Assembly: GCA_015065505.1 (NCBI GenBank)
Contig: SVQE01000023.1
Span: forward strand, 1-36,930
Reading direction: 5' to 3'
DNA: 36,930 nucleotides
DNA from: Oscillospiraceae bacterium
GTDB lineage: Bacteria > Bacillota > Clostridia > Oscillospirales > Acutalibacteraceae
Shown here: positions 2,999 to 26,646 of the stretch, in pieces
Layout: every line of letters begins with the position of its first letter
Position numbering within the stretch: the stretch's first letter is position 1
Made by a program: the position numbers and the translations under genes
The notes under the pieces: generated by a model
The model's database searches: none
What the model was told of the DNA's origin: nothing
Seen by the model: the letters and a program-made list of their open reading frames with translations, nothing else

Positions 2999-3075
2999 TA
3001 AAAAAATATGTAAATAAGCATATTAAATAAAAAGGCTGAATAAAATGAGAAGTCTATTCATTCACCGAAAATATA

Positions 3076-3127
3076 ATTGGAGCGAAGCGACCCGAAATTC
3101 GTAATTCGTAATTCCTAATTCGTAATT
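3076..3127. repeat. Modular intergenic repeat: GCGAAGC linker plus AATTCGT heptamer array
   Basis: The linker ATTGGAGCGAAGCGACCCGA is followed by about four tandem copies of the heptamer AATTCGT, one of them AATTCCT. The same linker recurs at 8630, 10806 and 20091, and in reverse near 26525. The block sits between the htrA terminator and the nifJ promoter and looks non-coding. Confidence 0.8.
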
Positions 3128-8551: not shown

Positions 8552-8568
8552 ATTACACGTTCAAATAA

Positions 8569-9715
<1,147 letters not shown>

Positions 9716-9753: not shown

Positions 9754-9765
9754 TATTTCTCTGCA

Positions 9766-9935
9766 AATTGTGATTTGTCGAGCCCTTTGGGCTCGCAAAT
9801 CACAATTAAGTGGTCAGTGGTCGGTGGTCAGTGGTCAGTATTTGGTGCTGCGCACGGCAACTATATAACTGGGCACTGTCCACTGGTCACTGGTCACTAA
9901 ATTATGATTTATCGCCTCAGCGATAAATCATAATT
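9766..9935. repeat. Composite repeat, version with AGTGGTC core
   Basis: The left hairpin (9766-9807) pairs AATTGTGATTTG-T-CGAGCCC with GGGCTCGCAAATCACAATT around TTT. The right hairpin (9900-9935) is a perfect 16-bp stem, AATTATGATTTATCGC, with loop CTCA. The outer arms of both hairpins fit AATTRTGATTTRTCG. Between them lie four AGTGGTC heptamers, a linker containing ACTATATAACTGG, and CACTGGT heptamers. The same end hairpins bound the elements at 19984-20182 and 26444-26640, but with a different core. Confidence 0.85.
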
Positions 9936-9952
9936 TATATATTTGTCTAATA

Positions 9953-10013: not shown

Positions 10014-10757
10014 ATGGAAAACGAAATTAAGGTTCTGCTTGAAGGTGTTAAAAACGGAAGCGTTTCGGTTGACGAAGCGTTGCTTAAAATCAAGGCGCAG
10101 CCGTTTGAGGATATAGATTTTGCAAAGATTGATTTTCACAGAAGCGCCCGTCAGGGCACGGGTGAAATTATCTATTGCGAGAGCAAAACAGCCGCTCAGA
10201 TTAATGCCATTATTGAAGCAATGCTTAAAAACAATCAACAAAGAATTCTTTTAACAAGGCTGAGCGCGGATAAGGCAAACGAGCTGAAATGCGAATTTGA
10301 AACAAAATATTATCCCGAGGCGGGAATCGGCATTATCGGCGGTTTTCCCGAGGTTAAAAGCGAGGGAAAAATTCTTGTTGCAACGGGCGGAACAAGCGAT
10401 GTTCCCGTTGCCGAGGAAGCGGCTTTAACCGCAGAATTCTTAGGTAATGATGTAATCAGGCTCTACGATGTCGGCGTTGCAGGGCTTCACAGACTGCTTT
10501 CCCACCTTGATGAAATTATGAGTGCATCGGTTATTATTGCAATAGCAGGAATGGAAGGCGCGCTTGCAAGCGTTATCGGCGGACTTGCAGACTGCCCCGT
10601 TATCGCAGTTCCGACAAGCGTTGGCTACGGCTCATCGTTTGAAGGGCTGTCGGCTCTGCTTTCAATGCTTAATTCCTGTGCAAGCGGCGTTTCGGTTGTT
10701 AATATTGATAACGGCTTCGGCGCAGGATATATATCTAATATGATAAATAAACATTAA
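10014..10757 (+). CDS. larB: LarB, pyridinium-3,5-biscarboxylic acid mononucleotide synthase
   Basis: LarB makes the first committed intermediate of the nickel-pincer nucleotide (NPN) cofactor by carboxylating and hydrolysing nicotinic acid adenine dinucleotide. The protein is 247 residues from this start. The N-terminal part (VLLEGVKNGSVSVDEALLKI, FHRSARQGTGEIIYCESKT) is LarB-specific. The C-terminal half is the PurE-like domain, with VATGGTSDVPVAEEAA, ALASVIGGLADCPVIAVPTSVGYG and a terminal NIDNGFGAGY. The track starts at a GTG (10005), but GGTGG upstream best serves the ATG at 10014. It has its own consensus promoter. larC follows only after a 410-bp repeat-rich gap, unlike the tighter spacing usual in lar operons. 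Confidence 0.93.
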   Translation: MENEIKVLLEGVKNGSVSVDEALLKIKAQPFEDIDFAKIDFHRSARQGTGEIIYCESKTAAQINAIIEAMLKNNQQRILLTRLSADKANELKCEFETKYYPEAGIGIIGGFPEVKSEGKILVATGGTSDVPVAEEAALTAEFLGNDVIRLYDVGVAGLHRLLSHLDEIMSASVIIAIAGMEGALASVIGGLADCPVIAVPTSVGYGSSFEGLSALLSMLNSCASGVSVVNIDNGFGAGYISNMINKH

Positions 10758-10860
10758 TTACTAATGACTAATGACGAATTTCGGGGCTTGCAGCCGGCTA
10801 TTATAATCGGAGCGAAGCGACCCGACAACTTGGAGCTCGGCACTCGGAACTCGAAACTTC
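10754..10860. repeat. Modular repeat downstream of larB (same block as 8573-8692)
   Basis: The block begins in the larB stop region with heptamers ATTACTA/ATGACTA/ATGACGA. It continues with GGGGCTTGCAGCCGGCTAT, the linker ATCGGAGCGAAGCGACCCGA, and a CTCGGCACTCGGAACTCGAAACTT heptamer run. It is colinear with the ilvC-leader block with only scattered substitutions. Confidence 0.85.
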
Positions 10861-11158
10861 ACTAACCACTTATTAACAAGAGAAGAGTTCGTTTCATTCA
10901 TCCGCTATTGTAACAACGGCGTTATTGCAACGGCGCGTCGAGGGCGTCGCGCCCTACAAATTTGTAATTCAAAGCCTCACACCTTCCCCTTGAGGGGAAG
11001 GGGGACCGCTTGCGGTGGATGAGGTGTGTTGCCTTAACAGCACAGTATAAGATTGTTCGCCGAAACGGAACTATATAATAGCCGACCGCAGGTCCCGAAA
11101 TTCGTAATTCGTAATTAACTATTCACTATCCACTACCCACTAACCACTTATTAACAAG
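10861..11158. repeat. Nested palindromic repeats bounded by a 20-bp direct repeat
   Basis: ACTAACCACTTATTAACAAG occurs identically at 10861-10880 and 11139-11158; the second copy leads into the larC ribosome binding site. Between them lie a GGGCG/CGCCC hairpin (10942-10954) and a structured unit (10975-11028). In that unit an outer stem CACACC/GGTGTG encloses CCTTCCCCT/AGGGGAAGG and ACCGC/GCGGT hairpins. A linker TATATAATAGCCGACCGCAG (also near 13388) and AATTCGT and CACTACC heptamers follow. No coding sequence was recognised, and the DNA would be transcribed as part of the larB-larC mRNA. Confidence 0.7.
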
Positions 11159-13161: not shown

Positions 13162-13447
13162 GCATAGTGCATAGTGCATAGTGCACAGAGCATAGTTATA
13201 ATGTATACAGGGGTCTGACCCCTGTATACATAGCGATATATTGCGCGAGGCGCAATGCGATATTTTGAACTTTATTCAAAGCGATATTGTTTGCTTTGCA
13301 AACAGCGATATTTTTTGCTGTTCACAAAAAGTTTATATAATAACGAGCCGCAAGGATTTTAATTGTAGGGCGCCGAAACGAATTATATAATAGCCGACCG
13401 CAGGTCCCGAAATTCGTAATTAACTACCCACTACCCACTATCCACTG
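13162..13447. repeat. Repeat cluster after larE: heptamers, palindrome, 24-bp array, linker
   Basis: In order: five GCATAGT-type heptamers (13162-13196), a 29-bp palindrome TGTATACAGGGGTC/GACCCCTGTATACA (13202-13230), the GCGATAT array described separately, the linker TATATAATAGCCGACCGCAG shared with 11070-11090, one AATTCGT unit, and CCACTAC/CCACTAT heptamers ending just before the terminator. The stretch is non-coding and would be transcribed with larE. Confidence 0.8.
13233..13330. repeat. 24-bp-period GCGATAT array with palindromic 17-bp spacers
   Basis: GCGATAT starts at 13233, 13257, 13281 and 13305, an exact 24-bp period. The first three 17-bp spacers are each a different inverted repeat: ATTGCGCGAGGCGCAAT, TTTGAACTTTATTCAAA and TGTTTGCTTTGCAAACA. 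A fourth palindrome, TTTTTGCTGTTCACAAAAA, follows the last unit and runs slightly past the 17-bp register. The spacers share no sequence with one another, only the palindromic form. There are no cas genes and the constant part is too short for CRISPR. Confidence 0.85.
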
Positions 13448-17961: not shown

Positions 17962-19982
17962 TGGAAAATTACAGCGAATTTAATATTCAATATATAAAAG
18001 GTGTTGGAGAAAAAAGAGCCCGGCTTTTCAACAAGCTGGGCATTTTTTCCGTTGCGGATTTAATTCACTTCTATCCGAGAAAATATCAGGACTGGAATAA
18101 CTGCGAAACCGTTTTATCCGCGCCCGAAAACGAAAATGTTGCAATAAAGGCAACAATGATAACCCCCGTTAAAGAGCATCTTATAAGAAAGGGTATGACC
18201 CTTTATAAATGCAATTTTTCAGACGGACAAACGGTTATTCATGTAACCATTTTCAACAACAAATATCTTGCAAAGGCGCTCAGAACCTTTGATGAATACA
18301 TTCTTTTCGGCAAGGTTGAAAAAAGCTTTACAAGCGCTTCGATGAGTTCACCGCAAATAGAATGCGCCGAAACAGCTCAGGGCATTCACCCCATATACAG
18401 CGCAACCGAAAATCTCAATTCAAAGGCTATTGCAAAAACAGTTAAAACAGCCCTTGAAAAATTTGAATATTTTGAAGATACCCTTGATGGCGAAATCAGG
18501 GATAAATATAATCTTTGCTCGCTTGATTTCGCACTCAGGCAGATTCATTTTCCGAGTGATGAAAAAAACATTGAAATCGCGCGCAGAAGGCTGATTTTTG
18601 AAGAGCTTTTAACCCTGCAGCTCGGTCTGTTAAAGCTAAAAGATAAAAAAGACACTAAGAATAATTTTCCACTTGAAAAAGACTTCACCGAGGAATTTTT
18701 ATCCCTTTTGCCCTTCACCTTAACAAACGCTCAGAGCAGTGCAATTAAGGACTGCATAAACGATATGCAAAGCAGCAAAACAATGAACAGGCTTATTCAG
18801 GGTGATGTTGGCTCGGGCAAAACGGCTGTTGCGGCTGCTGCTATGTTCAGCGCAATTAAAAACGGCTATCAGGCTGCTATGATGGCGCCCACCGAAATTC
18901 TTGCAAGCCAGCATTTTGAATCGCTTTCAAGGCTGTTTGAAAACACAGATATAAATATTGCCCTGCTCACAGGCTCAACCAAGGCAAAGGAAAAGCGCGA
19001 AATAAAAGAAGCGCTTATGAGCGGTGAAATTGACTTAATCGTCGGCACTCACGCGCTTATTCAGAACGATGTTGAATTTAAGGAGCTTGCCCTTGTTATA
19101 ACCGACGAGCAGCACCGTTTCGGCGTTGAGCAAAGGGCTTCCCTTGCAATGAAAAGCGCCTCACCCCACCTCATGGTTATGAGCGCAACCCCGATTCCGA
19201 GAACGCTCGGGCTTATTATCTACGGCGACCTTGATATAAGCATTTTAAACGAGCTTCCTGCAGGCAGAAAGAAAATAAGAACGGATGTTGTTGACACATC
19301 CTATCATCAGAGAATATATAATTTCATCAAAAAAACCGTTGATGAAGGGCATCAGGCATATATCGTCTGCCCCCTTGTTGAAGAGAGCGAAAGCGATTTA
19401 ATCTCGGCAACGGAATACGCAAATGAGCTTAGCGTTAAATATTTTCAGGGATATAACCTTGCGCTGCTTCACGGAAAAATGAAGGCAAAGGATAAGGACA
19501 GAGTTATGCAGTCCTTTGCAAATAAGGAAACGGATGTGCTTGTTTCAACAACGGTTGTTGAGGTTGGCGTTGATGTTCCAAACGCAACCGTTATGCTTAT
19601 TGAAAACGCCGAGCGCTTCGGGCTTTCACAGCTTCATCAGCTCAGAGGAAGAGTTGGCAGAGGCAGCGAGCAGAGCTACTGCATTCTTGTTTCCGACAGC
19701 AAGGGCGAAGCCTCAAAGGAGCGCCTTGCAATTATGAAGGAAACCAACGACGGCTTTAAGATTGCCGATTATGACTTGAAAACAAGGGGTCCCGGCGACT
19801 TCTTCGGAAAGCGTCAGCACGGACTGCCCAACCTCGTTATTGCAGATATGCTTGAGGATATGGAAACGCTGATGGAATGTCAGGAATGTGCAAAGCAGAT
19901 GATTAAAGAGGATGAAAACCTCGATAATTATCCCCTGCTCTGCGAGCAAATCAGCGATATGTTCCGCAAGGCGGAATACTAA
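17961..19982 (+). CDS. recG: ATP-dependent DNA helicase RecG
   Basis: RecG remodels stalled replication forks and Holliday junctions. The protein is 673 residues, full length. The N-terminal wedge/OB region begins with NIQYIKGVGEKRARLFNKLGI and VADLIHFYPRKYQDW. Helicase motifs follow: Walker A LIQGDVGSGKTAVAAAA, MAPTEILASQHF, DEQH-type ITDEQHRFGVEQR, MSATPIPRTLGL, and the C-terminal lobe with VSTTVVEVGVDVPNATVMLI and QLRGRVGRG. The RecG-specific tail DYDLKTRGPGDFFGKRQHG is intact. Translation is coupled to fakA by a one-base overlap. The stop codon is followed within 2 bases by the left hairpin of a composite repeat. Confidence 0.97.
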   Translation: MENYSEFNIQYIKGVGEKRARLFNKLGIFSVADLIHFYPRKYQDWNNCETVLSAPENENVAIKATMITPVKEHLIRKGMTLYKCNFSDGQTVIHVTIFNNKYLAKALRTFDEYILFGKVEKSFTSASMSSPQIECAETAQGIHPIYSATENLNSKAIAKTVKTALEKFEYFEDTLDGEIRDKYNLCSLDFALRQIHFPSDEKNIEIARRRLIFEELLTLQLGLLKLKDKKDTKNNFPLEKDFTEEFLSLLPFTLTNAQSSAIKDCINDMQSSKTMNRLIQGDVGSGKTAVAAAAMFSAIKNGYQAAMMAPTEILASQHFESLSRLFENTDINIALLTGSTKAKEKREIKEALMSGEIDLIVGTHALIQNDVEFKELALVITDEQHRFGVEQRASLAMKSASPHLMVMSATPIPRTLGLIIYGDLDISILNELPAGRKKIRTDVVDTSYHQRIYNFIKKTVDEGHQAYIVCPLVEESESDLISATEYANELSVKYFQGYNLALLHGKMKAKDKDRVMQSFANKETDVLVSTTVVEVGVDVPNATVMLIENAERFGLSQLHQLRGRVGRGSEQSYCILVSDSKGEASKERLAIMKETNDGFKIADYDLKTRGPGDFFGKRQHGLPNLVIADMLEDMETLMECQECAKQMIKEDENLDNYPLLCEQISDMFRKAEY

Positions 19983-19983
19983 A

Positions 19984-20182
19984 AATAATGATTTATCGCT
20001 GAGGCGATAAATCATTATTTGAGTTGCTGGTTGCGAGTGCCAAGTTCCGAGTTCAGGTTACTCGCTGCGCTCAAACAATAATAAAATCGGAGCGAAGCGA
20101 CCCGACAACTCGGAGCTCGGGGCTCGGTACTTGAAACTTTAATTGTGATTTGCGAGCCCAAAGGGCTCGTCAAATCACAATT
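19984..20182. repeat. Composite modular element, copy 1
   Basis: The left hairpin (19984-20019) is a perfect 16-bp stem, AATAATGATTTATCGC, with loop TGAG. The core has GAGTTGC-type heptamers, a TTACTCGCTGCGCTCAAACA segment, the linker ATCGGAGCGAAGCGACCCGA and CTCGGAG/CTCGGGG/CTCGGTA heptamers. The right hairpin (20141-20182) is AATTGTGATTTG-CGAGCCC paired with its bulged complement. The reverse complement of 26444-26640 matches this copy nearly base for base, with about 10 differences by eye. It fills the gap between convergent recG and the PrsW-like gene. Confidence 0.9.
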
Positions 20183-20210
20183 AAAAAACACGGCTTTTGC
20201 CGTGTTTTTT
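20183..20210. terminator. Bidirectional terminator between recG and the PrsW-like gene
   Basis: A perfect 12-bp stem AAAAAACACGGC/GCCGTGTTTTTT with loop TTTT, placed between two convergent genes and directly abutting the composite repeat. Confidence 0.93.
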
Positions 20211-25934: not shown

Positions 25935-25999
25935 TTATTCGAGGATATGTTTAACATATCCTCTTTTTGTTAATACTATCATCAAAAGGATGTGATAGT

Positions 26000-26449
26000 A
26001 TGAATGAAAAAATGAAAAAAGACGGAGACACCGTTAAGCTTCTTCGCGAATGCGACGCAGGAATAAAAATGGGAATATCCTCAATCGACGATGTTATTTA
26101 TGATGTTAAGGATAAAAGCCTGCGCGATATGCTTGATGAATGCAAACGCCGCCACGAGGTTCTCAGCATTGAAGTTGGCACTCTGCTTGACGACCATTTT
26201 GAAAGCGGAAAAAATCCGAACCCGATGGCAAAAAGTATGAGCTTCATAAAAACAAATGTTAAAATGATGGCTTCCCCGAAGGATTCAACGGTTGCAGACC
26301 TTATGACCGACGGCTGCAATATGGGCGTTAAATCACTCGGCAGATACCTTAATCAGTATAAAAACGCTGACGAAAAATCGCGTGCAATCGCAAAAAACCT
26401 GATTAATCTTGAAAGCAGCCTTGCTGTTGATTTGAGGAACTACTTGTGA
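26000..26449 (+). CDS. DUF2383-like four-helix protein
   Basis: A 149-residue, all-helical, acidic soluble protein common in Clostridia and resembling the DUF2383 group (ferritin-like four-helix bundles of unknown role). Helix-forming segments include GDTVKLLRECDAGIKMGISSIDDVI, LRDMLDECKRRHEVLSIEV and DLMTDGCNMGVKSLGRYLNQY. The track starts at a TTG (25967), but AAAGGATGTG sits 9 bases before ATG 26000 and MNEKMKKDGDTVKLL is the normal family beginning. The stop codon TGA at 26447-26449 lies inside the left hairpin of composite repeat copy 2. The protein still ends with the expected VDLRNYL, so the repeat did not visibly truncate it. Confidence 0.75.
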   Translation: MNEKMKKDGDTVKLLRECDAGIKMGISSIDDVIYDVKDKSLRDMLDECKRRHEVLSIEVGTLLDDHFESGKNPNPMAKSMSFIKTNVKMMASPKDSTVADLMTDGCNMGVKSLGRYLNQYKNADEKSRAIAKNLINLESSLAVDLRNYL

Positions 26450-26640
26450 TTTGTCGAGCCCTTTGGGCTCGCAAATCACAATTTAAGTTTCAAGTACCGA
26501 GCCCCGAGCTCCGAGTTGTCGGGTCGCTTCGCTCCGATTTTATTATTGTTTGAGCGCAGCGAGTAACCTTAACTCGGAACTTGGCACTCGCAACTCGCAA
26601 CTCAAATAATGATTTATCGCCTCAGCGATAAATCATATTT
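26444..26640. repeat. Composite modular element, copy 2 (inverted relative to copy 1)
   Basis: Left to right: the CGAGCCC/GGGCTCG hairpin (26444-26481), heptamers TACCGAG/CCCCGAG/CTCCGAG, the linker TCGGGTCGCTTCGCTCCGAT, TTGAGCGCAGCGAGTAACC, CAACTCG heptamers, and the ATGATTTATCGC hairpin (26605-26640). It is the near-identical reverse complement of 19984-20182. The right hairpin is followed by nine T, so it could also terminate transcription. It lies between a stop codon (inside its left arm) and the ddl promoter. Confidence 0.9.
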
Positions 26641-26646
26641 TTTTTA

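What the first reader, a model, noticed from the sequence alone, without database searches (positions are those of the whole stretch)
19984..20182. Composite hairpin-ended element present in two near-identical inverted copies
The reverse complement of 26444-26640 matches 19984-20182 nearly base for base. Both copies have an ATGATTTATCGC hairpin at one end and a CGAGCCC/GGGCTCG hairpin at the other, yet lie 6.3 kb apart beside unrelated genes. High identity implies recent copying or ongoing conversion. The outer arms of the two end hairpins fit one consensus (AATTRTGATTTRTCG), so the element has palindromic ends that are the same read either way. Subterminal hairpins recall IS200/IS605- and REP-type single-strand mobilisation, but no transposase is nearby. 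Copying by a TnpA_REP-like enzyme in trans is an inference.
Basis: partly seen in the sequence, partly recalled or inferred. Interest (0 to 1): 0.75.

Follow-up and report, generated by a model that had tools for sequence, protein, structure and literature searches.

The report
REPIN-like mobile hairpin repeat with heptads

Summary
Window 19981-20183 and 26441-26643 are inverted copies, 95-96% identical, with unrelated flanks. A third full copy lies on another contig, and the genome has 67 partial or full matches. The element is hairpin A, heptad-repeat arm, AT-rich centre, inverted heptad arm, hairpin B.

The same A/B cap pair encloses other heptad cores in this genome (e.g. window 9765-9936). 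It recurs in distant Clostridia MAGs, mostly from the rumen, at 100-250 hairpins per genome in the richest. There, 26 A-to-B composites have fixed ends and no target duplication. Sister species have empty sites at both window loci, so the copies are insertions, not a segmental duplication. Stem covariation shows that the hairpin structure matters.

It behaves like a REPIN or MITE: non-autonomous, intergenic, hairpin-capped. The genome does carry four Y1 (RAYT-type) genes, but each sits between its own unrelated hairpins. A MAG with 45 A hairpins has no detectable Y1 gene. No transposase was found between A and B.

Verdict: a real new family of a known kind, with an unusual architecture (unlike caps, interchangeable heptad halves). 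The mover is unknown.

The parts
19983..20183 (+). Composite element, copy 1 (hairpin A - heptad core - hairpin B), between the recG stop codon and a terminator
   Evidence: empty site in G073
19983..20020 (+). Hairpin A of copy 1 (AAATAATGATTTATCGC...GCGATAAATCATTATTT)
   Evidence: covariance model R1, 53.8-54.1 bits
20021..20139 (+). Core of copy 1: degenerate 7-nt repeat arm (GAGTTGC...), centre with GC motifs and AT-rich loop, inverted heptad arm
   Evidence: fold; arm complementarity score 38 against 14.2+-3.3 shuffled
20140..20183 (+). Hairpin B of copy 1 (AATTGTGATTTGCGAGCCC AAA GGGCTCGTCAAATCACAATT)
   Evidence: model R1, 34-34.7 bits
26441..26643 (-). Composite element, copy 2, inverted; its A hairpin lies just upstream of a T tract where sister species have an ordinary intrinsic terminator
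26441..26484 (-). Hairpin B of copy 2; overlaps the in-frame stop of the upstream ORF (25967-26449)
26604..26640 (-). Hairpin A of copy 2
   Evidence: model R1, 41.8-42.9 bits
9765..9936 (-). Third composite in the window: same caps (B 9765-9808, A 9899-9936) around an unrelated heptad core (AGTGGTC type, 9809-9898)
   Evidence: site lacks it in G006
10745..10859 (+). Uncapped heptad element, mosaic: left half of AATTACT/AATGACG type, right half of the GAACTCG type also found in copy 1; the arms are not complementary
8568..8682 (+). Uncapped heptad element, 86% identical to 10745-10859
   Evidence: family D2
11068..11134 (+). Uncapped heptad half-element (AATTCGT/ACTATTC type), second copy at 13380-13446
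   Evidence: family D8
3070..3127 (+). Uncapped heptad half-element: GC motif shared with copy 1, then AATTCGT heptads

Best explanation
Each copy is an insertion of a small non-autonomous mobile element that works like a REPIN or hairpin-ended MITE. Two different cap hairpins, A (stem ending TCGC/GCGA) and B (stem ending TCGAGC/GCTCGA), mark the two ends. Between them lies a long imperfect palindrome built from 7-nt repeats around an AT-rich centre. In single-stranded DNA the whole unit folds into hairpin, long stem, hairpin (folding shown by prediction only). I infer that an ssDNA-processing enzyme acting in trans recognises the caps by structure and copies or inserts the unit into intergenic DNA, often near stop codons and at terminators, without making a target duplication. 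The element carries no gene. Heptad arms expand or are corrected by polymerase slippage and template switching, and halves are exchanged between elements, so one cap pair carries many cores. Shown: multi-copy, A-B pairing, fixed ends, absence of TSD, empty sites, stem covariation, mosaic halves. Inferred: the mobilisation chemistry, the identity of the enzyme, and the origin of the heptads.
For: 67 matches in the own genome, including a third full copy on another contig. Both sites, and that of 9765-9936, lack the element in sister species of the same genus: G038, G073 and G051 carry gene end plus terminator at copy 2's site, G073 recG stop plus terminator at copy 1's, and G006 no element at the third. 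In other Clostridia the two caps form close A-B units, 104-208 bp apart; 20 of 27 close pairs are strictly typed AB/BA, with one AA and no BB. 26 oriented composites have conserved ends GGNAAATTC...GAATTTNYC and TSD of 5 nt or more in 0 of 27 against 0.2 expected. REP-like abundance: 139 A/113 B, 115/99 and 80/36 exact hairpins in three MAGs, reversed-pattern control 0. Stem covariation: 43 double-change cells against 11.8+-4.1 shuffled, 0/500. 12 of 103 hairpins inside long ORFs against 80% of random positions. Period-7 runs 26 in 437 kb against 0-1 for other periods from 4 to 13, none inside an ORF. Mosaic halves.
Against: No transposition event, excision product or autonomous parent was seen. 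No enzyme gene lies between A and B in the 1-2.5 kb intervals examined. Many hairpins are solo. The exact insertion border at the window copies cannot be fixed because intergenic DNA is diverged between species. In the window's own genus the ends are less uniform than in the high-copy MAGs, and the hairpins are found in only 5 of 80 genomes.
Confidence: 0.72

Rival explanations
1. A resident TnpA_REP/RAYT (the ~250-aa Y1 proteins of this genome) moves the A/B element in trans.
For: Four RAYT-length Y1 ORFs in the genome. The three genus members with the most A/B hairpins (G000, G049, G051) are also those with the most ~250-aa Y1 genes. Hairpin ends and no TSD fit single-strand chemistry.
Against: Each such gene is flanked by its own different hairpin, GGGGTCWGACCCC or GGGGAC...-type, whereas REPtron genes sit next to the REPs they process (PMC6006769). 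No fixed 5' GTAG-like tetranucleotide at the cap foot. MAG G062 has 45 A hairpins and no Y1 hit; G066 and G067 have about 40 each with only weak Y1 hits. The genus correlation is confounded by kinship.
Confidence: 0.15
2. A MITE of a DDE-type insertion sequence whose terminal inverted repeats are the cap outer arms (GGNAAATTCTGATTTRTCG).
For: Both ends share one inverted terminal sequence.
Against: No TSD; each end is itself a full palindrome with compensatory changes, which duplex-binding TIRs do not need; no transposase gene between A and B in the intervals examined.
Confidence: 0.12
3. No transposase: copies spread by host recombination, gene conversion and replication template switching between pre-existing intergenic palindromes.
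For: Mosaic halves and cap/core reassortment; related heptad elements of different type at the same intergenic sites in sister species (G006, G038); heptad arrays fit slippage, an idea cited in PMC4679880.
Against: Fixed ends and A-B typing in 26 composites, and sites with only a terminator in three sister species, need insertion of a defined unit.
Confidence: 0.2
4. Conserved RNA elements (bidirectional terminators or mRNA 3'-end stabilisers) kept by selection rather than mobile.
For: Located in intergenic DNA, often shortly after stop codons (42 of 88 flanking stops within 60 nt); copy 2's A hairpin precedes a T tract where sisters have a terminator.
Against: Absent from the same sites in sister species; found in 5 of 80 genus members; near-identical full copies in three unrelated contexts.
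Confidence: 0.08
5. Simple segmental duplication or inversion of one locus.
For: Two inverted copies 6.3 kb apart.
Against: Flanks unrelated, third full copy on another contig, empty sites.
Confidence: 0.01

Closest known systems
REPIN / BIME (REP doublets; Bertels and Rainey 2011, PMC3116915)
   Same: Two inverted, conserved palindromic ends 100-200 bp apart; variable spacer that still pairs with itself; intergenic; hundreds of copies; singlets beside doublets; gene-free.
   Different: The two ends are different self-palindromes (A and B), not one REP inverted; no GTAG foot; no RAYT flanked by A or B; the spacer is made of 7-nt repeats.
IS200/IS605-derived single-strand elements
   Same: Subterminal hairpins at both ends that differ from each other; no target duplication; gene-free copies outnumber any parent.
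   Different: No parent element or tnpA with these ends found; the guide and target tetranucleotides that define the family were not identified.
Heptameric tandem and inverted repeats of Xanthomonas and Nostoc (PMC4692102) and TAACTGA repeats of Beggiatoaceae (PMC4679880)
   Same: Intergenic 7-nt repeats; in Xanthomonas also as convergent pairs forming inverted repeats.
   Different: Those are described as G-quadruplex or regulatory repeats and not as capped mobile units; the repeat sequences differ; in the passages read no A/B-like caps are described.
Small dispersed repeats of Nostoc punctiforme (Elhai et al. 2008, Genome Research; from my own knowledge, paper not held)
   Same: Small hairpin elements embedded in tandem heptamers, with nested insertions.
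   Different: 21-27 nt units within heptads; no fixed pair of unlike caps at the outer ends.

Membership tests
REP sequence | 20-50 nt palindrome, high copy, intergenic | tested here: met
   37-44 nt; up to 139+113 exact hairpins per genome; 12/103 inside long ORFs against 80% random; covariation
REP sequence | Conserved 5' tetranucleotide at one foot, most often GTAG | tested here: not met
   Outer foot profile is a weak symmetric GGN/NYC, no fixed tetranucleotide
REPIN | Inverted doublet of REPs over-represented as a unit | tested here: met
   20 of 27 close hairpin pairs are strictly AB/BA, one AA, no BB, 104-208 bp apart
REPIN | Both ends are the same REP sequence, inverted | tested here: not met
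   The ends are two different hairpins sharing only the outer stem
REPtron / RAYT-mobilised REP | tnpA_REP gene flanked by the same REP | tested here: not met
   Y1 genes in the own genome, genus members and other Clostridia are flanked by other hairpins; G062 has 45 A hairpins and no Y1 hit
IS200/IS605 derivative | No target-site duplication | tested here: met
   TSD >=5 nt in 0/27 composites against 0.2 expected
IS200/IS605 derivative | Ends shared with a full element that carries tnpA | tested here: inconclusive
   No transposase between A and B in the 1-2.5 kb intervals examined; MAGs are fragmented, several copies lie at contig ends
DDE-type MITE | TIRs shared with an IS, plus TSD | tested here: not met
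   No TSD; no IS found between A and B in the intervals examined
Known Rfam RNA family | Match above gathering score | tested here: not met
   No match in the window

The most novel reading that the evidence does not exclude
A distinct class of single-strand mobile element: one fixed pair of unlike cap hairpins (A and B) mobilises interchangeable cores, each an inverted array of 7-nt repeats that is re-made or swapped half by half, under an enzyme that is neither a RAYT nor a known IS transposase.
Probability: 0.2. Interest if true: 0.72.

Novelty: new variant of a known kind. Interest (0 to 1): 0.52.

Why it matters
REPs and REPINs are usually explained by a cognate RAYT. Here is a REP-scale, hairpin-capped repeat in gut Clostridia whose caps match no resident RAYT hairpin, so the mover is open and testable. 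It also joins two puzzles usually treated apart, the intergenic heptameric repeats of many bacteria and hairpin-ended mobile DNA, by showing heptad palindromes as the payload of a capped unit. In practice, these repeats lie at several contig ends in this assembly and appear to replace a terminator.

Tried and rejected
Segmental duplication: flanks unrelated, third copy elsewhere, empty sites. RAYT in trans by flank match: rejected for the genes examined. Autonomous parent between mid-range A/B pairs: host genes only. Phage carriage: no A hairpin in 2.9 million viral contigs. Rfam: none. Target-site duplication: none beyond chance. Literature on Clostridia REP families and RAYT groups gave no match to A or B in the held papers; absence there is weak evidence.

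Full report
Observation. The pair is real: 203 nt, 96% complementary, 6257 nt apart; 194/204 in a gapped alignment, with flanks no more alike than shuffled sequence. The strand folds far better than shuffles (z -13.4 as DNA). Each copy is hairpin A, a 119-nt core, hairpin B. The core is a degenerate 7-nt repeat (GAGTTGC, GAGTGCC, AAGTTCC ...), a GC motif, an AT-rich centre, and the inverted counterpart. Arm complementarity scores 38 against 14.2+-3.3 for shuffles.

Not two copies but a family. A search of the window's own assembly (2.31 Mb, 95 contigs) gives 67 matches. A third full copy is on contig C88; its core is identical to copy 1's, the differences sitting in the hairpins and at the borders. 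Other copies share the core with different or missing caps, or the caps with a different core: window 9765-9936, C84:26944-27122 and C95:25302 have A with B or B-like ends around AGTGACC- or AGTGAAG-type heptads. In 437 kb of this genome, runs of period 7 number 26, against 0-1 for every other period from 4 to 13, and none lies inside a long ORF. Several matches lie at contig ends, so copy numbers are lower bounds.

Empty sites. Eighty genomes of the genus were searched with joined flanks and the orthologous stretches were read. Copy 2: G038, G073 and G051 have the end of the upstream gene, an ordinary terminator and the downstream gene, without the element. The window's upstream ORF still ends in the homologous codons (DLRNYL-stop against DLREYL-stop), with the stop overlapping hairpin B, and the A hairpin now stands before the T tract. 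Copy 1: G073 has the recG stop, a terminator and the downstream gene, without the element. The third element's site lacks it in G006. At two of these sites sister species carry other heptad palindromes (G006 at copy 2's site, G038 at the third), so these intergenic spots are used repeatedly.

Wider distribution. The richest have 139 A/113 B, 115/99 and 80/36 exact hairpins; the reversed-pattern control found none. There the anatomy is cleaner: A and B stand 104-208 bp apart, close pairs being AB or BA in 20 of 27, with one AA and no BB and the rest having a variant hairpin. Twenty-six oriented composites share the ends GGNAAATTC...GAATTTNYC with random sequence beyond. TSDs of 5 nt or more were seen in 0 of 27 against 0.2 expected. 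The heptads between the same caps differ by genome and even within one: AGTGGCT, AGGTTTT, GAATGAG, GAGACCC, TTAGGCA. Viral contigs hold no A hairpin.

Structure under constraint. On 36 hairpins of both types, 96.2% of stem cells pair, with 43 cells changed on both sides against 11.8+-4.1 in shuffles (0/500); sliding the partner collapses it. Ninety-three A hairpins from other genomes show the same: 90/93 Watson-Crick at the most variable outer pair against 55.7 expected. The caps therefore matter as hairpins. Within the window's genus the model finds them in only 5 of 80 genomes.

Which enzyme? This genome has four RAYT-length Y1 genes and one weak Y1 match. Each of the four is flanked by its own hairpin (GGGGTCAGACCCC or GGGGTCTGACCCC with varied outer stems at three, GGGGACGTACCCC at L037), and Y1 genes in relatives by GGGGACGGTTCC-type hairpins. 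None is flanked by A or B as a pair. MAG G062 has 45 A hairpins and no Y1 match, and G066 and G067 have about 40 each with only weak ones. Against this, the three hairpin-rich members of the genus are also the three with most ~250-aa Y1 genes, but they are close relatives of one another. I keep the RAYT rival at 0.15. No transposase was found between A and B at mid range. MAG fragmentation limits this test.

Mosaic halves. Some heptad elements have arms that do not pair at all: window 10745-10859 scores 13 against 12.0+-2.2 shuffled, and G006's L175 10 against 12.4+-2.3, each joining a left half of one heptad type to a right half of another through the central motif. G038's L163 is a milder case (20 against 11.8+-2.5). 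So halves are exchangeable, which fits recombination or template switching at the centre. Heptad arrays themselves fit polymerase slippage, an idea reported in PMC4679880; that step is inference here.

Comparison. By working principle this is closest to REPINs: inverted palindromic ends, a self-pairing variable spacer, intergenic, high copy (PMC3116915). It fails two defining tests, a fixed GTAG-like foot and a RAYT gene flanked by the same hairpin (PMC6006769, PMC8266576), and its two ends are unlike. It is therefore REPIN-like, not a proven REPIN. Inverted heptad repeats are known from Xanthomonas (PMC4692102), and heptad-embedded small elements from Nostoc (Elhai et al. 2008, from memory), without this capped design as far as read.

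Verdict. A real, recently active, non-autonomous mobile repeat family with an unusual architecture. The copying enzyme and the origin of the heptads are open.

Noticed in passing
L037-L040 (G000 contigs C78, C84 twice, C5): Four ~240-250 aa Y1_Tnp genes, each flanked by a pair of its own hairpins with a GGGGTC(A/T)GACCCC core (GGGGACGTACCCC at L037) and gene-specific outer stem: a separate REPtron-like family.
   Followed up: partly
L041:103-1791 (G000 contig C3 end): A single open frame reads a tRNA nucleotidyltransferase-like protein and continues into a Y1_Tnp (RAYT-like) domain with GC-rich palindromic insertions; fusion or insertion into the 3' end of the gene.
   Followed up: no
G000:C87:41688-42223 (L005, L007, L009, L010): Four head-to-tail copies of the heptad core, each about 140 bp: a local tandem amplification of the element.
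   Followed up: no
L034 (G000:C59:6243-6554): An A-capped copy whose core is interrupted by a further ~110-bp palindromic sequence (GACCGCTCCC...), a possible nested insertion.
   Followed up: no
L055, L047 and other solo A hairpins in L042-L121: Many solo A hairpins (56 of 84 non-paired, without a neighbouring heptad run) in gut MAGs, especially RGIG5665, in intergenic DNA.
   Followed up: partly
G006:C4:38976-39533 (L237) and G038:C9 (L246): Orthologous intergenic sites carry heptad palindromes of different type in sister species, suggesting recurrent insertion or replacement at terminators.
   Followed up: partly
G049:C45 (L277): A heptad element with a cap-like hairpin sits close behind the downstream hairpin of a Y1 gene; the only close neighbour of this sort seen.
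   Followed up: no
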